A stretch of 60,413 nucleotides of DNA, taken from the NCBI GenBank assembly GCA_005799525.1, contig SYGN01000051.1:1-60413 (forward strand). Direction: 5' to 3'. The translations under genes were made by a program, and so were the position numbers. The stretch is from Opitutaceae bacterium (GTDB lineage Bacteria; Verrucomicrobiota; Verrucomicrobiia; Opitutales; Opitutaceae). Below are positions 4,782 to 60,128 of this stretch, piece after piece. How positions within the stretch are numbered: the first letter of the stretch is position 1; every line of letters starts with the position of its first letter. A model generated the notes under the pieces. It searched no databases. It had not been told where the DNA came from and saw nothing but the letters and a program-made list of their open reading frames with translations.

Positions 4782-5276
4782 CCGCTCGTCGACGCCGCCC
4801 AGGTCATCGCTGCGCACAGTCCCGACGGCATCCCCGGCAACGATAGGTATGTCGACCACGTGTATCCCACCATCGGCGGCCACCAGCTGATTGCGCGCAC
4901 GATCGCTGCGCAGTTTCCCGCGCGCGGCTGGCTCCTCGGCGCCGCAGAGTGGCCGGAAGCGCAGCGCGCGAAAACTTATACGAGCCACCTCACCTCCCTC
5001 GGACCCGCGTATTTGGCCGACGGCAAGCGCCGCCTCGCGTGGCTCGAGGATTGGGCCAAACGCCCACGCCTGGCCGCCGAGAGCATTCCCAACGATGCCG
5101 CCGGGTTCGCCCGTCTCGCCTTCCGTCACCTCGACCTCGGCGACGAGGCCGTCGCGCGGGACGCGCTGCGAGAAGCGCTCGAGCGCTACACCGGCGTGGC
5201 CGACCTCGTCCGCACCCGCGCGCAAGCACTCACCGCCCAACGCCGCAGCGACGGCGCGGCTACGCTGTTGCGGTAG
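4782..5276 (+). pseudogene. 3' remnant of an SGNH/GDSL-like plus TPR protein
   Basis: The frame encodes TPLVDAAQVIAAHSPDGIPG, then DHVYPTIGGHQLIA, then an alpha-helical TPR-like tail (FARLAFRHLDLGDEAVARDALREALERY). The D-H-V-x-P-T-I-x-G-H segment corresponds to the C-terminal Asp-x-x-His catalytic block of SGNH hydrolases followed by TPR repeats. The N-terminal Gly-Asp-Ser part is missing; instead the frame runs upstream into repeat DNA with no homology. This is best read as a 5'-truncated gene broken at the 42-bp repeat. An ATG at 4650 is in frame but lies in repeat-derived sequence, so expression of a real protein is doubtful. Confidence 0.7.
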
Positions 5277-44281: not shown

Positions 44282-45589
44282 TCACGGCTGACCGAGCGTG
44301 AGGATGAACATCTGTCGTGTGCCGTCGGGGGCGATTGCGGGCACGACGATGGCGTCGCCAGTGCGATTCCAGCACGGGGCGGGATCGAGGCGGAGTTCGC
44401 CCTTGGCCCAATGCGACATGAAAATCGGCGGAGACTTCACCACGCGGCCGGTCTTTCGATTCAGAAAAGTGTAGTGATGGTGCTCGCCGTCGCGGTGACT
44501 GTTGACGAACCAACGGCCCGTCGGGCTGAGGGAAACATCGCCTTCGGGATTGGGAAACACGTCGGTGCCGCCCCACGACTCGACGATTTTTTTCTGCGCG
44601 GTGTCATACACGACCTGCTTTCCGTCATGCGAACCGATGAGGCGGCTGCCCCATTCCCAATCGGGATGCCCGCCAATATGAATCTCATGACGCGTAAGTC
44701 CGCTGCCGTCGGGGCGCACCGTGAAGGGCACGTTCACCTGTTCGGCGCGATTCTTGAAATCGGCGCGACAGAAAAAATAGATCAGATCGTTGTTCCGGTT
44801 GTTGAGCGTGTGATTGATGAACAGGTGTCGCTCATCGACGCGCGCCGTGGTGCCGCGCATCGCTTCGCGGAGTTGGGCAAAGGAAACGATGAGCCGCTTC
44901 TCGCCGGTGGCGATGTCGACGCGAAAAATGCCGTCGTCCGCCGGGGCCGCGACTTCGGTGGTCCAATCCGTGGCGCCGATGTAGCCGGTCACCGGCCGCA
45001 GCCGCGCCATGCGCGCATAGTTAATCGCCAGAAAGTAGCCGCCGTTTTGCGCGACGCCGCCGTTGGCGACGGGAGTCGCATCGAAGCGGTATTCGCGGAC
45101 GCGTTTTCCTTTTCCACCTTCGGCGGAGAGGTCGAACAGCACGGTGAACACCTTCCCGGTCTTTGGGTCGCGATCGTTGAAAAAAAACTGGGTCGCGGGG
45201 TGCGCCGGGTTCCAGTAGAACATGGTTCCCTGTTGCGGATTGTAGCCGCGCGACTGATCGACGACGCGCAGGGCGTAGTTTACCCGGGTGTCGATCAGGC
45301 AGACGTCGGCGGGATCGTCGGGCCCCGGCATCCGATCCTGAAAGGGAACCTGCAGCGCCAGGATGTAGCGGCCGTCCGCGCTCCACGGGATGGTGCGGCT
45401 CTGGCCGATGTAGCCGAAATAATGGTGGCTCGGGCCATGCGTGATCTGCGTGACGGTGACGGGTGCTTCGGCGGCGGCGAGCGGAGCCAACGCCGAGACG
45501 AAGCCAAGTCCGAGCAAGAGCGGAAGCACGCGGGTGAAGTGACGGCTACCGCGAGGGGCGATCTTCACCGGTGGACGCGCGCAGCTCAT
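44282..45589 (-). CDS. Secreted beta-propeller protein (PD40/oligogalacturonate-lyase-like)
   Basis: A 435-residue exported protein with leader FTRVLPLLLGLGFVSALAPL. Repeating propeller words are RTIPWSADGRYILALQVPFQ, GTMFYWNPAHPATQFFFNDR, HPDWEWGSRLIGSHDGKQVV, DVSLSPTGRWFVNSHRDGEH and APCWNRTGDAIVVPAIAPDG, fitting the PD40/TolB-type propeller also found in PL22 oligogalacturonate lyases. A lyase role on unsaturated uronides is plausible given the BNR-4 neighbour, but no catalytic set was verified. Its ATG overlaps the sulfatase stop (45586-45589). Confidence 0.7.
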   Translation of the reverse strand: MSCARPPVKIAPRGSRHFTRVLPLLLGLGFVSALAPLAAAEAPVTVTQITHGPSHHYFGYIGQSRTIPWSADGRYILALQVPFQDRMPGPDDPADVCLIDTRVNYALRVVDQSRGYNPQQGTMFYWNPAHPATQFFFNDRDPKTGKVFTVLFDLSAEGGKGKRVREYRFDATPVANGGVAQNGGYFLAINYARMARLRPVTGYIGATDWTTEVAAPADDGIFRVDIATGEKRLIVSFAQLREAMRGTTARVDERHLFINHTLNNRNNDLIYFFCRADFKNRAEQVNVPFTVRPDGSGLTRHEIHIGGHPDWEWGSRLIGSHDGKQVVYDTAQKKIVESWGGTDVFPNPEGDVSLSPTGRWFVNSHRDGEHHHYTFLNRKTGRVVKSPPIFMSHWAKGELRLDPAPCWNRTGDAIVVPAIAPDGTRQMFILTLGQP

Positions 45590-47052
45590 TTTCCCGCGTC
45601 GGGGCGCGTGAACCCGCGGTCGCGCGCGGCGGCGAGGAAACGTTTCATTTTCGCAACTTGGTCCCGGTGCGTGGCGGACAAGTCATTCATCTCGGAGGGA
45701 TCGTCCTTGAGGTTGAAGAGCTCGTCGTGCGTCGGGCCGGCATGGACCTTCTTGGCGGTCTTTGTGGTTGGACGGTGCTCGAACTTCGGGGCGCCGACGC
45801 GCTCGATGAGCTTCCAATCGCCGAGGCGAAGGGCGTAGGTGCCGTCGGCGGCTTGCGTGATAAAGTGGTCGCGCACGGGCGGGCCGGGGGTGGGCTCGGT
45901 GAATGCGCGGAGGACGTTGAAGCTGTCCTCGGCAGCGCCCTTGGGCAGCGGCGCTTTCAGCACAGCGGCAACGGTGGCGAGCACGTCGGGCAACGCGATG
46001 ACCTGGTCGCTCACGGTGTTGGCGGGAACCCGGCCAGGCCAGCGGACGAGGAACGGCTCGCGGAAGCCCCCTTCGTATTCGGTGTGCTTGCCGCCGCGCA
46101 GGTGACCGTTGATGGCGAGGCCGGCCTCCATGGCTTTGGCGGTGTTACCGTTGCCGGCGTCGACGATGCCACCGTTGTCACTGGTGAAAATAATGAGCGT
46201 GTTTTCGGCGAGCTTCAGCCGGTCGAGCGTGGCGAGAATCTGGCCGACGCTCCAGTCCAGCTCGTGAATGAAGTCGCCGTAGGCGCCGTAGGGGCTGCCG
46301 GTGAACCGCGGATTCGGCGCGATCGGGCCGTGCACGGCGTTGGGCGCGAAGTAGAGAAAGAAGGGCGCCGCGTGATTGGCTTCGAGCCAGCCAGTCGCCT
46401 TCGCCGTGAGGGTCTCCATGATGCGGTCGACGACACGTTGATCGCGGATGCCGGTCGTCGTGCCCTTCGCACCCGGGCTGGCGACGACGACTTTCTCGCC
46501 GGGGGTGCGGCCGACGACGTTTTCATTCTCGATGAACGCGTGAGGGCCGTTCCCGGGATTGCCGCCGAGGCCGTAGAAATAATCAAATCCCACGGCGCGC
46601 GGGCCGGGTTGCAGCGGTTGGTTCCAATCGACCTCAGTCGCGCCGGTTTGAAAACCCAGATGCCACTTGCCGAATGCGCCGGTGCGGTAGCCCTGCGATT
46701 GGCAGAGCGAGGCGAGCGTGACGCGGCTCGGTTCGATGTGGAGCGGAGCGGTCGGAGTGAGGACTTCGCCGTCTTTGATGGCCGTGCGCCAAAAATAGCG
46801 ACCGGTCATCAAGCCGTAGCGCGAGGGCGAGCACACCGAACTGGGCGCGTAGGCGTGGGTGAAACGGCGGCCCTCGCGGGCGAGGCGATCGAGGTTCGGC
46901 GTCTGGAGATTTTTGGCGCCGTAGGGCGTGGAACTGCCCCAACCGAAATCGTCGGCAAGGATGACGACGATATTGGGCTTGTGATTCTGCGCCGCCGCCG
47001 CGGCGGAGATCGCGATGAGGAAAAAGACGGTCCAAACGAAGCTAGTTTTCAC
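45586..47052 (-). CDS. Secreted sulfatase of the glycan operon
   Basis: A 488-residue sulfatase starting with GTG. Leader FVWTVFFLIAISAAAAAQ; metal residues ILADDFGWGSSTPYG; formylglycine site Cys74 in SSVCSPSRYGLMTGRYF; GAFGKWHLGFQTG; FTSDNGGIVDAGNGNTAK; LRGGKHTEYEGGFREPFLVR; C-terminal ELFNLKDDPSEMNDL. It is translationally coupled to the propeller gene and 45 bases after the BNR gene, so it most likely desulfates the same polysaccharide. Confidence 0.93.
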   Translation of the reverse strand: MKTSFVWTVFFLIAISAAAAAQNHKPNIVVILADDFGWGSSTPYGAKNLQTPNLDRLAREGRRFTHAYAPSSVCSPSRYGLMTGRYFWRTAIKDGEVLTPTAPLHIEPSRVTLASLCQSQGYRTGAFGKWHLGFQTGATEVDWNQPLQPGPRAVGFDYFYGLGGNPGNGPHAFIENENVVGRTPGEKVVVASPGAKGTTTGIRDQRVVDRIMETLTAKATGWLEANHAAPFFLYFAPNAVHGPIAPNPRFTGSPYGAYGDFIHELDWSVGQILATLDRLKLAENTLIIFTSDNGGIVDAGNGNTAKAMEAGLAINGHLRGGKHTEYEGGFREPFLVRWPGRVPANTVSDQVIALPDVLATVAAVLKAPLPKGAAEDSFNVLRAFTEPTPGPPVRDHFITQAADGTYALRLGDWKLIERVGAPKFEHRPTTKTAKKVHAGPTHDELFNLKDDPSEMNDLSATHRDQVAKMKRFLAAARDRGFTRPDAGK

Positions 47053-47097
47053 GGCGAAGAAAACGGCTGAGCCGGCGACACGCGATATCGGGTGCGC

Positions 47098-48561
47098 TCA
47101 GGGTTCGTCATTGGCCAGCCCTGCCCGTTTCTTCCGTTTGGCATCCCTCTTGGGCGAGCCTTTGGGCAAAGCTTTGATCAACTCGAGTCGGTCGCCCAGC
47201 TGGCTGGCCTCCGCAGCCGGGCGAGACAGCGGACCGCGGTCACCGATGAGATACATGCGATGGTAGAGGTGCTCCTGATTCGCGTTTTTTCCGGCCACCA
47301 ACATGCGCGCGTCCGGATGGGCGTTGCGCACGAGCGCGGTCGTTTCGAAACCGGTATCCGGCAGCGTGATCAGGTCCGGACCCCGGGTCCAAGTCCGCCC
47401 GCCGTCGGCGGTATTCCACCAGCCGACGGAGCCGACCCCGGCCTCATTCTTGTCCAAGAGCATTCGCACCCGCAGCGGTGAATCGATGAGAAAGTCCCCG
47501 TCATGCCCGCCGCCGCGAGCATCCGCGACCTTTGTCGGCGGGAGCCAGGCCTTACCGTCCCAGCGGAAGTAGCGCACTTCGCCGTGCGGAAAGCGGAAGA
47601 AGATGTGCGGCCGCCCCTCGGCATCGACGTGGCAGGTGCCATGGTTGGATTTCTCCTTGCCGGTGGCCTGAATCAGCGTGAGCCGGTCGGCCGCCTCCTT
47701 GGTCACGGGCAGGGCAAGCCGCTCTCCCTGCACATTCGTCCACGATCCATCGCGGCAATCCATCCGCATGTAGTAGGTGTTGTTCCGATGGGCGTTGTGA
47801 CCCGGGTTGGCGCAGGGGTGATAGACATACGACGCCGAGATGGTGTCGTCCCGACCATTCTCGAACCAGGCATACCACGTGTCATGGACCGTGAGTTTGT
47901 CGGCGCTCACCTTGTGCTTCAGCACCGATACCTGCGGCGCGAAGGTCCGGCCGTGGTCGGTCGACTTCTGGTAAACCCAGTCACTGCGGTGCGAGCCGTG
48001 CCGGTAGAACAGATACAGGTCGCCGTTGGCCAGCTTCACCCACTGGCTGTAGGTGCCGAAGGGCGAGACGTTATCCAACGTCTTCCACGCAGAGATGTCG
48101 CCGGGTTTTGCGGAGACGACGTGGATGAACCGGCCTTTCCCCGGCGTCCCAAATTTGTTCTGGCCCAGACCCGGGTCGCCGCCGTGCCCGCCGAAAACAA
48201 GGTGAATGTAGCCCTGCCGGTCCACGACCAGCGCGGGGCGGCCGTGGTTGTCGAGTTCGCCCGGGTCGATCTGGTCGGGTGACTTGCCCATCGGGTTGAC
48301 GCCCGCCTGCACGGGGCCGAGCCACTGACCCGTCGCGTGCACGTAGGCGGCGACATAGGGGTCCTCGTGCGGGCCGGAGTAAGCGACGTAGGTCACACCG
48401 TTGAAATGCTCGGCCGCCGGATGCTGCATCGTGCTGAGCGGATTGCCGTAGCCGTTGTCGGTGAAGTAGTCGACGTTGGCGGCGGCGCAGGCACCGTAGA
48501 GGCACAAGGCGCTGAGCAGCGCGAAGAACCGGCGAGCGGTGGATGCAGGGAGGATCGTCAT
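47098..48561 (-). CDS. Secreted BNR-4 propeller protein, candidate polysaccharide lyase
   Basis: A 487-residue exported protein, leader FFALLSALCLYGACAAANVD, with a BNR-4 type seven-blade propeller: AAEHFNGVTYVAYSGPHEDP, DNHGRPALVVDRQGYIHLVF then GGHGGDP, YSQWVKLANGDLYLFYRHGS, DWVYQKSTDHGRTFAPQVSV and VGWWNTADGGRTWTRGPDLI. BNR-4 proteins include PL24/PL25 ulvan lyases, in which a His in this propeller takes part in catalysis, so a lyase for a sulfated uronan is a reasonable hypothesis. It has a basic C-terminal segment (KGSPKRDAKRKKR). It sits 20 bases after the TonB receptor gene. Confidence 0.8.
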   Translation of the reverse strand: MTILPASTARRFFALLSALCLYGACAAANVDYFTDNGYGNPLSTMQHPAAEHFNGVTYVAYSGPHEDPYVAAYVHATGQWLGPVQAGVNPMGKSPDQIDPGELDNHGRPALVVDRQGYIHLVFGGHGGDPGLGQNKFGTPGKGRFIHVVSAKPGDISAWKTLDNVSPFGTYSQWVKLANGDLYLFYRHGSHRSDWVYQKSTDHGRTFAPQVSVLKHKVSADKLTVHDTWYAWFENGRDDTISASYVYHPCANPGHNAHRNNTYYMRMDCRDGSWTNVQGERLALPVTKEAADRLTLIQATGKEKSNHGTCHVDAEGRPHIFFRFPHGEVRYFRWDGKAWLPPTKVADARGGGHDGDFLIDSPLRVRMLLDKNEAGVGSVGWWNTADGGRTWTRGPDLITLPDTGFETTALVRNAHPDARMLVAGKNANQEHLYHRMYLIGDRGPLSRPAAEASQLGDRLELIKALPKGSPKRDAKRKKRAGLANDEP

Positions 48562-52348: not shown

Positions 52349-53539
52349 CTACAGCCAGGCCCATGCGGGGACGACTTCCACCGGCAGGCCGTCCACTTTC
52401 AAGTTGTCGCGCTGGTCGAGTGTGACGACGACAGCTCGACGCTTGCCCGGCAGCGCGCACGCCTGCGTCAAGCCTGCGAGTTCGCGGTCGCGGTTGAAGG
52501 GCGTTAGTTCCGCGCAAACCTGGATGGCGTGATTGCCAGTGACAAAATCACACTCCCAGGAATTCTTCTCGCCCGCGTAAGAGGGCGCCGCGCCCCGCTG
52601 CCGGAGCGCAAGAAAGACCGCGTTTTCCAGTCGATGGCCTACGTCGGGGGTGAGGTTCGGCGAGTTCACGCGGCGCAGCCCGTTGTCGACGGCGTAGTAC
52701 TTCGCGGGCGCGACCACGCGCTGTTTGAACGACGGACTGAACTTTGGCACGGCAAAGAGCAGGTAGGCGTCCTGCAGGTATTCGACGTAGCGCGACGTTT
52801 GGCTGACCGTCGGTATGGCGAGCGCCTTGGTTAGGCTTTGCAGCGAGCTCGGCTGGCCCGTGTTGGCTAATAGGAACAGCGCAAGGTTGAGCACATGCCG
52901 CGACTCGCGCAGGTGGTGACGCTGGGCGATGTCGCGCTGCACGATGTCGCGCAGCAACTCCCGCAGGATCTGCGGGTCGCGCTCGGGCAGGTAGCCGGGA
53001 AAGCCCCCCTGGTCGAGGAACGCGGTCAGCGTGGCCGCACCGCGCTTGCCGCCCGCGTACGCCAGAAACTCCTGGTAGTTGAACGGGAAGACCTCGAACG
53101 AGCGATGGCGGCCGGTCAGTTTCGCCCCCAACTCCCGCCCGAGCAGGGACGCATTTGAACCAGTGGCACAGACCGCGAAGCCGCGATCCAGGAGCGCACG
53201 CACCAGCCGCTGCCACTCAGGCAGTTCCTGAACTTCGTCCAGATAGACCGTCTTGTGCACGGCGAGTTCTTCGATCACTTCAAGCAGCGTCGGGAAGTCC
53301 TGCGGCCCCAACCCGAACAGTCGCGTGTCCTCGATGTTCAAGTAGAACGCACGCGTGCCGCCCCGTATGAGCTGTGCCTGCAGGATGCTCTTGCCGCACC
53401 GCCGCACACCCGTCAGCACGAGTGCGTGCCGGGTCTGCACGGGCAGCGTCGCGGCGAGTTCGCGCCAGACTTCCGGTTTAGGCGCCACGGGTGGCCGCTG
53501 GTCCTGCAGGATGCCGAAAAGTGTATCTCGTAAAAACAC
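52349..53539 (-). CDS. AAA_14/DUF4143 ATPase
   Basis: A 396-residue ATP-binding protein. Walker A GVRRCGKS (44-51), Walker B VYLDEVQELPEW (98-109), sensor-like AVCATGSNASLLGRELGAKL, then FEVFPFNYQEFLAYAG, GGFPGYLPERDPQILRELLR (AAA_14), and a C-terminal DUF4143 nuclease-like domain (KYYAVDNGLRRVNSPNLTPD; LENAVFLALRQRGAAPSYAG; WECDFV). These standalone ATPases are widespread in mobile regions and their role is unresolved. The start is GTG 53539, lying inside a palindrome (53521-53564). The gene is flanked by RAYT-derived elements E1 and E2. Confidence 0.88.
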   Translation of the reverse strand: MFLRDTLFGILQDQRPPVAPKPEVWRELAATLPVQTRHALVLTGVRRCGKSILQAQLIRGGTRAFYLNIEDTRLFGLGPQDFPTLLEVIEELAVHKTVYLDEVQELPEWQRLVRALLDRGFAVCATGSNASLLGRELGAKLTGRHRSFEVFPFNYQEFLAYAGGKRGAATLTAFLDQGGFPGYLPERDPQILRELLRDIVQRDIAQRHHLRESRHVLNLALFLLANTGQPSSLQSLTKALAIPTVSQTSRYVEYLQDAYLLFAVPKFSPSFKQRVVAPAKYYAVDNGLRRVNSPNLTPDVGHRLENAVFLALRQRGAAPSYAGEKNSWECDFVTGNHAIQVCAELTPFNRDRELAGLTQACALPGKRRAVVVTLDQRDNLKVDGLPVEVVPAWAWL

Positions 53540-54429: not shown

Positions 54430-54777
54430 CCGGCACGTCTGCGCCGCCGCAACCCGATTTCTGAGGTATCCTATCCCACACAGAAAACTCAGACGCAAAC
54501 CAGCAGACGCGAAAGAACAGCCGCCCGATCCCTGTGTTTGAATGGAAACCAAGCTGCACCGACGACGAAACTGGCTGCGCTCCGCTGGGATGCGCCTATC
54601 AATCGAAGTGCCCTGAACGGAGGCAGTCCGTCGGCCGTGTTTGGTAGCATACCAAGGAATACGCATTGCACGGCTCCTTTCCGGGGCACAGAAACCGCCC
54701 CCAAGTCCACTTCTGAAGAACCCGATTGTCCCTGGCCCAATACCGTGCAGATCCTGCAACCCGTCTCAAGCCCCGCG
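54430..54777. promoter_or_regulatory. 348-base leader of the AroE-like gene, with a LacI-type palindrome
   Basis: TTGGTAGCATACCAA at 54641-54655 is a perfect palindrome (TTGGTA-GCA-TACCAA), 122 bases before the ATG. The same TAGCATACCA core occurs at 57028-57042 next to the LacI-family gene. The rest of the stretch shows no gene; an in-frame ATG at 54538 exists but gives sequence without family character. Confidence 0.65.
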
Positions 54778-55581
54778 ATGCCAGCGACCATCGACGGGCA
54801 AACCCGTCTCTACGGCATCGTCGGCGATCCCATCTTCCAGGTTAAGTCTCCCGGGGGCATCACGGCTCAATTTGCAGCTCGGGGCGCCAATGCCATCTTG
54901 GTGCCCATGCATGTCCGGCCAGGCGACTTCGATGCCTTCATGGCAGCGATGCGGGGGCTCCTTAATCTCGAGGGGCTCGTGCTGACCATTCCGCACAAGA
55001 TGTCGGTCGTAAAGCACCTCGACCAGATGACTGACCGGGTCCGCTTTTTGGGCGCTGCGAACGTCATCCGCCGAGTCGCTCCCGGAGGGGGGTGGACCGG
55101 CGACGTGACCGACGGCCTGGGCATGGTCAACGCCCTGCGCTCATCCGGTTTTTCCCTGCCCGGGAAACGCGCCCTCCTCGTCGGGGCTGGCGGCGCCGGT
55201 TCGGCGATCGCCTTGTCCCTCATCGAGGGAGGAATTGTCGAGCTGGCGATTCACGATGCCTTGTCGGCGCGGCGCGATCGCCTTGTCACCCGGCTCAAGG
55301 AACGAGGGGGCAACGTCCGCGTGGGCTCGCCCGATCCCAGCGGCTTTGATCTGGCGATCAATGCCACTCCCACCGGGGCCAAGGCGAATGACCTACTCCC
55401 GATTGAGGCGGAAAAACTGGCTTCCGGGACTTTTGCCGCAGATGTGATCACCGCGCCGGTGCGAACCCGCTTCCTGGAAGTGGCCGCGGCCCGCGGGTGC
55501 CGCACCCAGGTCGGCACAGCGATGTTTGCCGGACAGGTTGACCTCGTCGCGGAGTACTTGCTGGCGGCACCACGCGCGTGA
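54778..55581 (+). CDS. Shikimate dehydrogenase-like protein
   Basis: A 267-residue AroE-fold oxidoreductase. Catalytic lysine region LTIPHKMSVVKHLDQMTDRV (Lys74), AANVIRR, GDVTDGLGMVNALR (Asp112), NAD(P) loop LVGAGGAGSAIALSLIE (GAGGAGS, 136-142) and NATPTGAK. The substrate-binding S-x-S of true AroE is replaced by VKSPGGITAQF, so it is probably a catabolic or special-purpose homologue and not the biosynthetic enzyme. The start is at MPATIDGQTRLYGIVGDPIF, where the fold begins. It overlaps the MFS remnant start (GTGA at 55578-55581). Confidence 0.85.
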   Translation: MPATIDGQTRLYGIVGDPIFQVKSPGGITAQFAARGANAILVPMHVRPGDFDAFMAAMRGLLNLEGLVLTIPHKMSVVKHLDQMTDRVRFLGAANVIRRVAPGGGWTGDVTDGLGMVNALRSSGFSLPGKRALLVGAGGAGSAIALSLIEGGIVELAIHDALSARRDRLVTRLKERGGNVRVGSPDPSGFDLAINATPTGAKANDLLPIEAEKLASGTFAADVITAPVRTRFLEVAAARGCRTQVGTAMFAGQVDLVAEYLLAAPRA

Positions 55582-55911
55582 AACTGGCCGAGATCGCGCC
55601 TGCGGCCGGCACCGCCAGCCGCCACGCGGCGAGATTCGAGTGGAGCGTGTTCGGGAAACCAACCCTGTGGTGGCTGATGGCGATGTACCACGCCAATGCG
55701 TGGTGCGGCTTCTTCTATCTCTCGTGGATGCACACGTTTCTTGTCCGGGGCCGCGGGTTCACCCCCAATGAGCACCACGGTGTGTTTTGGCTATCTGGTC
55801 GCCGCCTTTGGCAGCTACTACAACGCGCCGCTCATCCCGATCGCGCTAATGTCCGCCTTTGGTGCTATGGCCTGGCTGCAAATCGACGCGACGCAGCGCG
55901 TGGCGGACTGA
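55578..55911 (+). pseudogene. MFS transporter remnant, internally deleted and frameshifted
   Basis: A GTG overlapping the AroE-like stop opens a frame with FGKPTLWWLMAMYHANAWCG then FFYLSWMHTFLVRGRGFTPN, which resembles an internal helix (and following loop) of hexuronate/galactonate-type MFS transporters. Shortly after, another frame gives CFGYLVAAFGSYYNAPLIPI and MAWLQIDATQRVAD, the last helix and C-terminus of such a protein. Most helices are missing, so no transporter can be made. The family suggests the locus once imported a sugar acid. Confidence 0.72.
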
Positions 55912-55917
55912 CCCGCC

Positions 55918-56967
55918 TCAGGGGGATCGAACAGTGGGTCCCTCGACCCAGGCGGGAGGGATCAGGATCTGGCGCGGAACTTCCGGCACCCCGCGCTCGT
56001 TCTGCATGAGTTGCGTCACAATCAGGTCGACCACTGCCGCCGCGACGTGAGGTCGCTGGTGGTAGATTCCGGCGAACTTCGCGTCCTCCGCGCGCCAGTC
56101 CTGCACGACGAGGCCGATGTCCTCGGGGATCCGCAGGCCGAGCCGGCGCGTGAGCCAGTCGGGGACGTAGGCGTCGAACGAGATCACGACGTCGGGCCGG
56201 TGCTGCTTTACCCACCGGCAGAAAATGGCGGCATTCTCCGCCACGTTGTTGGTGGGAAAGAGCAGCAACGGCACCCGTTCACGGGGTGGCAGGCTGCGCT
56301 GGAAATTCAGCATCGCGCCCGAGTTCGTCTGATCCGCGCGCACATCCATCCATTGCGTCAGCGCGAGCCCAATCCTCCGGTAGCCACGCGCCACCAGGAT
56401 CGCCACGGTCTGGAGAATCCCGCGGGTCATGTTTGTGCTGGCGCGATGCAACATCGGATGTTGAAGCCCGTAGCCGATCGTGGCGGCCGCAAAGTCCGTA
56501 TAGTCGATGCGGGCGCCAAAGTTCCTTGATGATTGGGGCGACAGGATGAGCCCCTCGATCCCGCGCGAGCGAAGGATCTGCACGAGACGCTCGGCCGTAA
56601 TCCCATCCCGACCGACAAAGAACTCCTCCGCCCGATAACCGTGCTTTTCGGCCCGGCGGCGAATGTCATCGAGAGCCACATATTGATAGGCCGAATCGTG
56701 CAGTTCGTCCGCCGGATTGTCGTCGCGCACCACGGCAATGACCGATGTGAGCCGGCGCTGCCGATAACTTCGTACCCGGGCCATCAGCCGGGTAATTTGC
56801 GGATCAGGCTGGTAGCCCAGCTTGCGCGCCGCCTGTTCCACCGCGCGTCGATTTTCGGGCAGGACGTTGGGATGCCGGTGAAAGACCCGCGACACCGTCA
56901 TGGGCGACACGCCCGCCGCACGAGCCACCGCCTGCAAACCACCCGTTGCTGTTTTCGGTTTCGCCAT
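55918..56967 (-). CDS. LacI-family transcriptional regulator
   Basis: A 349-residue repressor-type regulator. N-terminal helix-turn-helix LQAVARAAGVSPMTVSRVFH (residues 11-30) and hinge ENRRAVEQAARKLGYQPDP, followed by a periplasmic-binding-protein-like effector domain (RGIEGLILSPQSS; VARGYRRIGLAL; HRPDVVISFDAYVPDWL; DIGLVVQDWRAEDAKFAGIY HQR). It is divergent from the TonB receptor, and a palindrome in the shared spacer matches one before the AroE-like gene. It most likely senses a sugar or sugar acid and controls both units. Confidence 0.92.
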   Translation of the reverse strand: MAKPKTATGGLQAVARAAGVSPMTVSRVFHRHPNVLPENRRAVEQAARKLGYQPDPQITRLMARVRSYRQRRLTSVIAVVRDDNPADELHDSAYQYVALDDIRRRAEKHGYRAEEFFVGRDGITAERLVQILRSRGIEGLILSPQSSRNFGARIDYTDFAAATIGYGLQHPMLHRASTNMTRGILQTVAILVARGYRRIGLALTQWMDVRADQTNSGAMLNFQRSLPPRERVPLLLFPTNNVAENAAIFCRWVKQHRPDVVISFDAYVPDWLTRRLGLRIPEDIGLVVQDWRAEDAKFAGIYHQRPHVAAAVVDLIVTQLMQNERGVPEVPRQILIPPAWVEGPTVRSP

Positions 56968-57027
56968 GTCTCGGCATCATATCGTGCGGCTGATTTCGCC
57001 GAGGCAAGCAGGGATCTCCTTCCTCGT

Positions 57028-57042
57028 GTGATAGCATACCAC
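57028..57042. promoter_or_regulatory. Candidate LacI-family operator between regulator and TonB receptor
   Basis: GTGATAGCATACCAC is a palindrome with one mismatch (GTGATA-GCA-TACCAC) and shares TAGCATACCA with the perfect palindrome at 54641-54655. It lies 61 bases from the regulator ATG and 102 bases from the receptor ATG. Confidence 0.65.
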
Positions 57043-57143: not shown

Positions 57144-60128
57144 ATGAAAACCTACTGCACCCTCGCATTCCTCGCCGGCGGGCTCGCCGCCGGTTTCGCG
57201 CAAGTCGCCCCGACAACCTCCGCACCCTCGAAACCGGCGTCCGCGGACGCCGAGACTATCACGCTCTCGCCCTTTCAGGTCGAGGCCGGCCGCGAGCAAG
57301 GCTACCTCGCCACGCAGACGCTCAACGGCACCCGGCTCAAGACCGACCTGAAGGACATCGGCTCCGCCCTCACGATTTTCACCGAGCAGCTGCTCGATGA
57401 CCTCGCGGCGCACAACATCAACGACGTGCTGATGTTCGCGCCGAACACGGACCCGTTCGTCAACCGCCTCTCGGAGTCGCGCGTCAACGGCAACGACCTC
57501 CTCAACAACCCGACGATCTACGTGACGCGCGGCGGCTCCACCACCGTCGTCAGCCAGGACTTTTTCACCAACAGCATCCCGCAGGACCGCTACAACTCCG
57601 AGGCGATCACCTTCACCCGCGGCCCCAACTCCATTCTCTTCGGCCTGGGCAATCCCGCCGGCGCGTTCGTCAGCTCGACCAAGCGCGCCAAGAACCAGAC
57701 CGCCACCGCCCTCGAGTTTTTCGGCGACGAGCGCGACAGCTATCGGGTCGCGGTCGACCACAATCAGGTCATCAGGAAAGATCTCCTATCCGTGCGCTAC
57801 AACGGCGTCTACGAGATGACCCGCTCGTATCGCTACCCGAGCAAGGGCAATCATCGCCGCCAATTCTTCACGGCCACGTTCACCCCCTTCAAGCGGACGT
57901 CCATCCGCCTCAACTACGAAGGCGGCTTCATCCGGCAGCCGGCGATCCGGCCCTGGCCGATTTTCGACGGTGTGTCTGCCTGGCTCGCGGCGGGGTCGCA
58001 GATGCTCTCAACTCCCACGCCCACGCCCTCCAAACCCGCCGGCACCAATATCGCCAACTATGGCTCTGCCGGTCCGGTCTCGTTGCAGTTTAGTCCGGGT
58101 GGAACGTTCGTTCCGATCCAAAAGCGCCAGAACGAAGGCCTGAGCGCGTTGCCCACCTACGCCACCGGCTTCCCGGTGACTTCCGGCGCCAACCTGCGCT
58201 CGCTCGTCAACCCCTCCCTCTATCCCACGCTGGCCAGCTCCCTGAGCGACACCTCCTACCGCCGGAACCACTATCGCATCTACTCGGCGTTCATCGAGCA
58301 GCAGATCACGAGGGACTTCTTTGTCGAAGGCGCGATCAACCGCCTCACCGACGACCGCCATGTGGTCGACGGCTTCATCGGCAACGCCGACATCCTCTAC
58401 GCCGACGTCAACCGCCAGTTGCCCAGTGGCGCGCCGAATCCCAACGCCGGCAAGTTCTACACCGAGTCCAACATGGGCCTCATCGTCAACCCGACCGAGA
58501 GCCTCGCGAAGCGCGCCATGGCGTCCTACGATCTCGATCTCACGCGGCAGGGCCCGGCCTGGCTCCGCCACTTCGGCCGCCATCGCGCGGCAGCGTTTGT
58601 CGAGCAGGTCGAGTCGAAGACCTTCAACAGCAACATGCGGGCGTGGGACATCACCAGCGCCGCGCGTTTCTCCACACCGAACGCGAAATACAACTGGCCG
58701 ACCTCCGACCTGATCGCGTTTCGCTACTACTACGATCCGGCGGCCGACAAGGTGGGCAACCCGGGCAGCCCGTTCGCCAATTTTCCCATCCTCTACGCCA
58801 ATTCGCCTCTTCCCCCGGCGGACCCCAGCGGCGTCACGATCGCCTACGTGAACACCAACGGTCCCTCCGCCAACCGCAGCGAGATCACCACGCGGGCATT
58901 TGCCCTGCAAAGCTCGTTCTGGCAGGGCCGGCTCATCCTCACCAACGGATTTCGCACCGATCGCTCCAGGGCCTGGTCCGGGACGGCCGCCAATTTCGAG
59001 CCCTTCCGGGACCAACGCGGCATCACCGCCGATCCCCGGGGATTCGATGTTCGCACGGCGTTTCCCGCGAGCCTGCGGGAGCGGGACGGTCACACCTCCA
59101 CTCGCGGCGCGGTGCTGCACGCGCTGCCGTGGCTGAGTTTCGCCTACAACACCTCCGACAACTTCCAGGTCAACGCCGCCACTCGCAACGTCTATGGCGA
59201 TCTCCTGCCCAACCCGAAGGGACGCGGCTCGGACTACGGCATCAAGCTCTTCCTCTTCGAGCAGAAGCTCGTCTTTGATCTCATGTATTACACGAACGAG
59301 ACCGTCGACAAGATCGACCCCGTCGCGATCACGACGGCCGGCAACTTCGTCGACAACGTGAACGTGGCGTGGGAGGCCATCGCTGGAATAACCGGGGACA
59401 ACAAGTATCGCAGTTCGCCCTATGACAGCCGGAGCGCCGGGGGCTGGTCCGACAGCACGTCGACCCGCTCTACGGGCTGGGAATTTTCCGCTACGGCCAA
59501 TCCCACCAAGCAGTGGCGCCTGACGATCAACGGCAGCAAGCGCAGCACGGCTTCGACGACTGCCCGCGGCGTGAACATCATCGCCTACCTCAACGAATAT
59601 CTGCCGATCCTGCGCAACCCCGCCTGGCAGTCGGCCACCACCCCCGGCAGCACCCTGACCGTGGCCGATCGGGTCGCGACGATTCAGACCACGCTGAACA
59701 ATTTCGTCGCGACGCGAAATCTGCCGGAGGACATCTACGCGCCCAGCTGGTCGGTGAACGTCGTCCAGACCTACACGTTCGCGCGCGAGTCGCGCCTCGC
59801 CGGTTTCTCCCTCGGCGGCAGCATGAACGCCCGCGGCAAATCGATCGCCGGTTTCGGCGAAACCAGGACCGACATTTTTGATCCGGACCTGCGTTACTAC
59901 GCGCCGGCCTTCGAGAATTTCGGCGCGTGGATCACCTACCAACGGAAACTCTTTTCGAACCGCGTCGACTGGCGGCTGCAGCTCAACGTCCGCAACGTCT
60001 TCGACGCCTACAAGATTTATCTGAACCGCGCTGTCGACGCCCGCGATGGCAGGAACACCCAGGCCAACGTCATCTACCGCCTGAACGAACCGCGCACGTT
60101 CGCGCTCACGAGCGCCTTCAAGTTCTGA
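57144..60128 (+). CDS. TonB-dependent receptor of the LacI-linked locus
   Basis: A 994-residue receptor. Signal peptide CTLAFLAGGLAAGFAQVAPT, TonB-box-like ETITLSPFQVEAG, plug domain (LKDIGSALTIFTEQLLDDLA; NDVLMFAPNTDPFVNRLSES; TFTRGPNSILFGLGNPAG), and a barrel ending RTFALTSAFKF with terminal Phe. The substrate probably matches the effector of the adjacent LacI regulator. It is followed 44 bases later by a sialidase-like gene in the same direction. Confidence 0.93.
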   Translation: MKTYCTLAFLAGGLAAGFAQVAPTTSAPSKPASADAETITLSPFQVEAGREQGYLATQTLNGTRLKTDLKDIGSALTIFTEQLLDDLAAHNINDVLMFAPNTDPFVNRLSESRVNGNDLLNNPTIYVTRGGSTTVVSQDFFTNSIPQDRYNSEAITFTRGPNSILFGLGNPAGAFVSSTKRAKNQTATALEFFGDERDSYRVAVDHNQVIRKDLLSVRYNGVYEMTRSYRYPSKGNHRRQFFTATFTPFKRTSIRLNYEGGFIRQPAIRPWPIFDGVSAWLAAGSQMLSTPTPTPSKPAGTNIANYGSAGPVSLQFSPGGTFVPIQKRQNEGLSALPTYATGFPVTSGANLRSLVNPSLYPTLASSLSDTSYRRNHYRIYSAFIEQQITRDFFVEGAINRLTDDRHVVDGFIGNADILYADVNRQLPSGAPNPNAGKFYTESNMGLIVNPTESLAKRAMASYDLDLTRQGPAWLRHFGRHRAAAFVEQVESKTFNSNMRAWDITSAARFSTPNAKYNWPTSDLIAFRYYYDPAADKVGNPGSPFANFPILYANSPLPPADPSGVTIAYVNTNGPSANRSEITTRAFALQSSFWQGRLILTNGFRTDRSRAWSGTAANFEPFRDQRGITADPRGFDVRTAFPASLRERDGHTSTRGAVLHALPWLSFAYNTSDNFQVNAATRNVYGDLLPNPKGRGSDYGIKLFLFEQKLVFDLMYYTNETVDKIDPVAITTAGNFVDNVNVAWEAIAGITGDNKYRSSPYDSRSAGGWSDSTSTRSTGWEFSATANPTKQWRLTINGSKRSTASTTARGVNIIAYLNEYLPILRNPAWQSATTPGSTLTVADRVATIQTTLNNFVATRNLPEDIYAPSWSVNVVQTYTFARESRLAGFSLGGSMNARGKSIAGFGETRTDIFDPDLRYYAPAFENFGAWITYQRKLFSNRVDWRLQLNVRNVFDAYKIYLNRAVDARDGRNTQANVIYRLNEPRTFALTSAFKF

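What the first reader, a model, noticed from the sequence alone, without database searches (positions are those of the whole stretch)
54641..57042. Two matching palindromes define a candidate LacI-type regulon
TTGGTAGCATACCAA (54641-54655, before the AroE-like gene) and GTGATAGCATACCAC (57028-57042, between the LacI-family gene and the TonB receptor) share a ten-base core and the same palindromic layout with a GCA centre. The regulator gene lies between the two sites. This suggests one repressor controls uptake (TonB receptor, sialidase-like gene) and metabolism (AroE-like gene, former MFS transporter).
Basis: partly seen in the sequence, partly recalled or inferred. Interest (0 to 1): 0.7.

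Follow-up and report, generated by a model that had tools for sequence, protein, structure and literature searches.

The report
Sugar-acid repressor and its DNA sites
Two matching DNA palindromes in an Opitutus-like bacterium are very probably the landing sites of the LacI-type repressor encoded between them, and many relatives of this repressor have the same unusually short site design, often beside genes for taking up or breaking down sugar acids.

Summary
TTGGTAGCATACCAA and GTGATAGCATACCAC bracket a LacI-family gene, and their shared ten-mer occurs nowhere else in the 4.71-Mb assembly, which is 84% complete. The only close relative of this locus among 252 family genomes (LacI 92%, AroE-like 84% identical) has the site before lacI and before the AroE-like gene. 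Of the 29 listed LacI proteins at 50% identity or more, 25 have G[GAT]TA-N3-TA[CAT]C within 150 nt upstream, against 0 of 77 other LacI genes and 0.42 expected (pattern written). SAM recognition helices go with TGTTA half-sites, the window's SPM with TGGTA. The core spans 11 bp, one less than the canonical LacI operator. In 21 of 25 the start codon follows 3-6 nt later. In six genomes chosen because two sites were already known there, the 13-mer occurs nowhere else. Neighbouring genes in relatives point to galactonate-type catabolism. The regulon is supported for the AroE-like gene, plausible for the TonB receptor, and not supported for the sialidase-like gene. Binding is untested.

The parts
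54641..54655 (+). Operator-like palindrome 1, TTGGTAGCATACCAA; 11-bp core GGTAGCATACC at 54643-54653, 124 nt before the AroE-like ATG
   Evidence: matched in L033 at 4828-4838, 123 nt before the start position that aligns with the window's
54778..55581 (+). AroE-like (shikimate dehydrogenase fold) gene, probable target
   Evidence: Pfam Shikimate_dh_N; all 17 NCBIfam matches below their cut-offs; a better aroE match lies on C95; 84% ortholog in 1 other of 252 family genomes searched, two more matches at 37-38%
55578..55910 (+). Remnant of an MFS sugar-acid-type transporter; about the first 200 residues are missing and the frame is damaged further on
   Evidence: 69% identity over 74 aa to residues 200-273 of the 420-aa gene of L033; end of the remnant judged by eye
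55918..56967 (-). LacI-family regulator, recognition helix SPMTVSR, hinge PDPQITRLM
   Evidence: Pfam LacI; 29 listed places at 50% identity or more, the window included; tree
56973..56983 (-). Probably decayed ancestral operator/-10 at the lacI start (GATATGATGCC)
   Evidence: ungapped 28 of 45 identity to L033, whose site GGTATGCTACC lies at the same place; no chance control was run for this
57028..57042 (+). Operator-like palindrome 2, GTGATAGCATACCAC; 60 nt before lacI and 101 nt before the TonB receptor gene
57144..60128 (+). TonB-dependent receptor, divergent from lacI, plausible target
   Evidence: Plug domain 23.3 bits, just below the Pfam cut-off of 23.9; divergent TonB gene beside lacI in 9 of 27 ortholog neighbourhoods

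Best explanation
The two palindromes are operators of the LacI-family repressor encoded between them. The protein belongs to an Opitutaceae clade whose genes are preceded by an 11-bp G-N-T-A-N3-T-A-N-C core. The commonest form is TGTTATNATAACA, overlapping the -10 box of a probably leaderless lacI promoter (autorepression), with in 8 of 27 neighbourhoods a second copy just beyond the far end of lacI, mostly at the head of sugar-acid catabolic genes. In the window's lineage the recognition helix reads Pro-Met instead of Ala-Met, and the half-sites read TGGTA instead of TGTTA. Without the inducer (inferred: a sugar acid or its 2-keto-3-deoxy derivative) the dimer blocks the AroE-like gene and the lacI/TonB promoter region; with inducer it lets go. 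Shown by computation: the sites, their rarity, their conservation and the helix/half-site correlation. Inferred: binding, repression, inducer and the TonB target.
For: The ten-mer occurs twice in the genome, both here. The two positions are kept in L033/G079 with the sequence upstream of each site largely diverged. 25 of 29 orthologs carry the motif within 150 nt, against 0 of 77 other LacI genes and a shuffle mean of 0.42, maximum 3 in 200 rounds. With spacing left free, 23 of 29 have GNNA/TNNC arms 3 nt apart (0.87 expected) and 0 of 29 have the canonical 4 nt. In six genomes where one search had shown two sites, TGTTATTRTAACA occurs exactly twice each, 12 of 12 beside lacI, reversed control 0. 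SAM proteins go with GTTA (22), SPM with GGTA or GATA (2), SPI with GGTA in 1 of 2, in line with the published link of AA-15/16 to NT-5/-4 (PMC2978694, sections 6, 9 and 10 read).
Against: No binding data. 4 of 29 orthologs (L042, L045, L051, L053) lack the motif in the tested stretch, among them one of the two SPI proteins; L042 and L045 have a match elsewhere in the fetched stretch, L051 and L053 none. The motif pattern was written after seeing the upstream regions. The Ala-to-Pro switch rests on one clade of two sequences plus one SPI gene on a long branch. Site 2 is imperfect and lies 60 nt before lacI, not 5 nt as in L033. TonB is not the neighbour in L033. Orthologs share sites partly by descent. 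The TA...T of the -10 box is implied by the motif pattern, and the 19-nt promoter spacer is longer than usual (usual length recalled).
Confidence: 0.87

Rival explanations
1. The sites are operators of this LacI protein, but the second site serves only lacI autoregulation and the TonB receptor is outside the regulon; the real regulon is lacI plus the AroE-like/MFS unit.
For: In L033 lacI faces an FAH hydrolase and a dehydrogenase gene, not a TonB gene; in 21 of 25 orthologs with a site it sits 3-6 nt before the lacI start codon.
Against: In the window the good site is 60 nt upstream of lacI, while the ancestral lacI position holds a decayed site, which fits a move towards the TonB promoter. 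Divergent TonB genes adjoin lacI in 9 of 27 neighbourhoods.
Confidence: 0.3
2. The palindromes belong to another DNA-binding protein, or are shared promoter elements, and their nearness to lacI is accidental.
For: The operator contains a -10-like TA...T hexamer, and in 16 of 29 orthologs a TTGAC box stands at a fixed distance before it, so part of the conservation could be promoter conservation.
Against: Second copies lie at other genes, both arms of the dyad are kept, the motif is absent from 77 other LacI genes, and the half-site changes with the recognition helix.
Confidence: 0.06
3. Chance match of two short palindromes.
For: In the window alone, 9 of 100 shuffles give two or more matches with 1 mismatch allowed.
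Against: Whole-genome rarity, both positions kept in a relative from another genus and clade-wide recurrence.
Confidence: 0.01

Closest known systems
Local, autoregulated LacI-family sugar regulons (Ravcheev et al. 2014, PMC4052901; abstract and passages seen)
   Same: LacI-type HTH, local regulon, palindromic site before its own gene and before neighbouring genes; autoregulation reported there for 72% of factors
   Different: Odd palindrome without a central CG; that paper reports even palindromes for 1251 of 1303 factors and odd ones for 4% (e.g. LacR, GalR, EbgR). The word Verrucomicrob- does not occur in its main text
LacI recognition code of the TVSR group (Camas et al. 2010, PMC2978694; passages and sections 6, 9, 10 seen)
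   Same: TVSR helix, G at NT-6, recognition residues AA-15/16 tied to NT-5/-4; the PM class is named in its Figure 4 legend, which says its predicted palindromes lack an experimental test
   Different: Core one base pair shorter than the canonical CG-centred site; hinge residues differ from the conserved Ala (AA-51) by my own alignment to recalled LacI. Its Table S1 was not seen, so which bases it assigns to AM and PM is not known here
E. coli lac operator O1 (described in PMC2978694 section 10)
   Same: Natural LacI-family operator that is not an even palindrome
   Different: O1 has one intervening extra base; here the core is one base shorter than canonical
D-galactonate catabolism genes (DgoD/DgoK/DgoA type)
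   Same: Relatives of this LacI sit beside galactonate dehydratase, 2-keto-3-deoxygalactonokinase-family and KDPG-type aldolase genes (one representative of each cluster was scanned)
   Different: The window has an AroE-like gene and an MFS remnant; no galactonate dehydratase relative at E up to 1e-20 was found in its 84% complete assembly

Membership tests
LacI-family transcription factor | N-terminal LacI HTH domain | tested here: met
   PF00356, 53 bits against cut-off 27
LacI-family transcription factor | Periplasmic-binding-protein-like sensor domain | tested here: inconclusive
   PF13377 24.0 bits, cut-off 26.5
LacI-family transcription factor | Palindromic operator-like site near its own gene | tested here: met
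Canonical CG-centred LacI operator | Even palindrome with GNNA/TNNC arms 4 nt apart (12-bp core) | tested here: not met
   0 of 29 orthologs with a 4-nt gap, 23 of 29 with a 3-nt gap; control: 18 other LacI genes with TVSR show the 4-nt gap in 4, but over all 77 others it is 5 against 2.34 expected, maximum 6, so no clear signal
LacI recognition code (TVSR group) | TVSR helix with G at NT-6 and NT-5/-4 following AA-15/16 | tested here: met
   SAM with GTTA in 22 cases (one spelled SAMSVSR), SPM with GGTA/GATA in 2, SPI with GGTA in 1 of 2; the search pattern itself fixes G and allows only G, A or T next
DgoR-like D-galactonate regulon | Galactonate catabolic genes as targets | tested here: inconclusive
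   By gene neighbourhood in relatives, not in the window
LacI-family repressor | Sequence-specific binding and inducer release | not testable with these tools
   needs gel shift or footprint

The most novel reading that the evidence does not exclude
A whole clade of LacI repressors has given up the CG-centred 12-bp operator for an 11-bp one, with matching changes in the hinge helix, and embeds it in the -10 box of a leaderless lacI promoter. Within the clade a natural Ala-to-Pro change in the recognition helix was matched by the same base change in the half-sites of both operators, a recorded natural re-wiring of repressor specificity.
Probability: 0.5. Interest if true: 0.55.

Novelty: new member of a known kind. 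Interest (0 to 1): 0.42.

Why it matters
It gives a predicted operator and regulon for a LacI clade in Opitutaceae; my searches of the held papers found no description of either (searches returned none; the 15 of 45 papers listed show no such title). The 11-bp core poses a clear structural question: where do the hinge helices insert if the central CG step is missing? The paired change of recognition helix and half-sites is a natural test of the published LacI recognition code. The site also helps to assign sugar-acid uptake genes.

Tried and rejected
The sialidase-like gene as a target: only 3-mismatch matches inside genes. Further sites in the genome: the 1-mismatch place on C38 lies inside an ORF. 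GGTAGCATATC in G079 (L034, L036) is at control frequency. AroE-like relatives at 37-38% identity (G200, G247): L175 has only a 26% LacI match and two loose pattern matches, L176 (8,775 bases held) has neither. A scan for perfect 6-bp arms in all 106 upstream regions gave only mild enrichment: gap 1, 13 against 4.45 expected; gap 3, 13 against 3.65, shuffle maximum 12; gaps 0 and 2 at chance. The clear signal is in the ortholog clade. I considered FadR-type GntR sites and dropped them because the spacing does not fit (recalled). A promoter for the AroE-like gene could not be placed. Papers on leaderless autoregulated LacI genes or leaderless genes with Verrucomicrobiota gave nothing directly relevant (listings; passages of PMC10783764).

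Full report
What is there. The two 15-mers are at the stated places. Site 1 (54641-54655) is a perfect 6+3+6 palindrome; site 2 (57028-57042) pairs 5 of 6. Between them lie, in order, an AroE-like gene (+, 54778-55581), an MFS remnant (+) and a LacI-family gene (-, 55918-56967); a TonB-dependent receptor (+, from 57144) follows site 2. An open frame runs through site 1 (54538-55581), but homology of the AroE-like protein to its relative starts near 54769, so the site is probably noncoding. Site 2 lies in the divergent lacI/TonB space, 60 nt before lacI and 101 nt before TonB.

Is it more than chance? In the window alone the evidence is weak: 9 of 100 shuffles give two or more matches with one mismatch. 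In the whole assembly (4.71 Mb, 84% complete) the exact ten-mer is found only at these two places, control 1, and GRTAGCATAYC also only here, control 1.

The close relative. One other of the 252 family genomes searched (G079; apparently the same contig as L033, titled an Opitutus sp. GAS368 MAG) has the LacI at 92% and the AroE-like protein at 84%; it is placed in another genus. There the order is dehydrogenase and FAH hydrolase genes, lacI, a 420-aa MFS gene, the AroE-like gene. GGTATGCTACC occurs 5 nt before the lacI start and 123 nt before the AroE-like position that aligns with the window's start, where the window has 124 nt. The sequence upstream of each site is largely diverged; downstream of the AroE-side site some conservation continues, perhaps a promoter. 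The window also keeps, at the lacI start, a sequence that aligns without gaps to the relative's operator region (28 of 45 identical) but with a damaged core, GATATGATGCC. So the window's good lacI-side site probably replaces an ancestral one that has decayed (inference).

The clade. I took the 29 places listed at 50% identity or more (27 genomes, the window included; that search scored at most 8 candidates per genome, so some may be missing) and 77 other LacI upstream regions: 13 places fetched and 60, taken in the order with one skipped for lying at a contig end, plus LacI genes met in the fetched neighbourhoods. Of 108 HTH hits one was dropped near an end and one as a duplicate. 25 of 29 have G[GAT]TA-N3-TA[CAT]C within 150 nt; 200 shuffle rounds give a mean of 0.42 and a maximum of 3; the 77 give 0. 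The pattern was written. Of the four without it, L042 and L045 have a match farther off in the fetched stretch, L051 and L053 none. A test that leaves the spacing free finds perfect GNNA/TNNC arms 3 nt apart in 23 of 29 (0.87 expected) and 4 nt apart in 0 of 29. Among 18 other LacI genes with TVSR the canonical 4-nt gap is the commonest (4), but over all 77 others it is 5 against 2.34 expected, which is not clear. The published picture is an even palindrome for 1251 of 1303 LacI factors, mostly CG-centred, and odd ones for 4% (PMC4052901, passages).

Specificity. The 22 SAM proteins with a nearby motif (one spelled SAMSVSR) have GTTA half-sites, the two SPM proteins GGTA or GATA, and one of two SPI proteins GGTA on one arm. 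The two SPM proteins form one clade (100/100) whose place among the SAM lineages is unresolved, so the switch is probably one event. This agrees with the published link between AA-15/16 and NT-5/-4 (PMC2978694); its table of classes was not seen. The hinge here reads PDPxxxRLM; the paper's conserved AA-51 Ala and AA-54 Leu are, and my placing of these on the window protein uses the recalled LacI sequence.

Promoter geometry. In 16 of 29 orthologs TTGACN stands 19 nt before the TA...T hexamer inside the operator, at no other spacing from 15 to 21, and in 0 of 77 others. In 21 of the 25 with a site, the first in-frame start codon after it is 3-6 nt beyond the 11-bp core; the others are 0, 38, 43 and 62 (window). 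Transcription from that -10 box would begin at or next to the start codon, so the mRNA is probably leaderless and the repressor would block its own -10 box (inference).

Regulon. In 8 of 27 fetched neighbourhoods (L040, L041, L046, L048, L049, L050, L052, L064) a second site lies just beyond the far end of lacI. Genes that follow there or commonly adjoin include a 2-hydroxyacid dehydrogenase, galactonate dehydratase (461 bits, cut-off 311, L046), a 2-keto-3-deoxygalactonokinase-family protein and, in L064, a KDPG-type aldolase and a PfkB kinase; one representative per cluster was scanned. A divergent TonB gene adjoins lacI in 9 of 27 by BLAST. In six genomes chosen because one search had shown two sites there, TGTTATTRTAACA occurs exactly twice per genome, 12 of 12 beside lacI, reversed control 0. 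The window's MFS remnant matches the L033 transporter, which is 66-76% identical to MFS genes in three relatives (L043, L060, L064). The window's assembly shows no galactonate dehydratase relative at E up to 1e-20, an FAH relative elsewhere (65%) and a better aroE match elsewhere (197 bits, cut-off 200), so the AroE-like enzyme probably serves another sugar-acid step (inference).

Verdict. It is a new regulon of a known kind with an uncommon operator geometry.

Noticed in passing
lacI orthologs, e.g. L049:9488, L056:9518, L063:9759: Operator overlaps a -10-like box and the start codon follows 3-6 nt later in 21 of 25, which suggests leaderless lacI mRNA.
   Followed up: partly
55578-55910: MFS transporter remnant; the gene is open over 420 aa in L033 (2544-3806).
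   Followed up: partly
56973-56983: Probably decayed operator at the ancestral lacI position.
   Followed up: partly
45586-48561 and sulfatase-like matches at about 9.6, 12.7, 15.0, 25.6 and 34.3 kb: Several sulfatase-like genes, several TonB receptors and a BNR_4 protein with a weak match to an alpha-L-rhamnosidase model (31.6 bits, cut-off 700); possibly a sulfated-polysaccharide region.
   Followed up: no
52349-53539: AAA_14/DUF4143 ATPase gene between the two clusters.
   Followed up: no
54654-54680 and the matching stretch of L033: Conservation continues downstream of the AroE-side site (GGAATACNCNTTGCAC), possibly promoter sequence.
   Followed up: no
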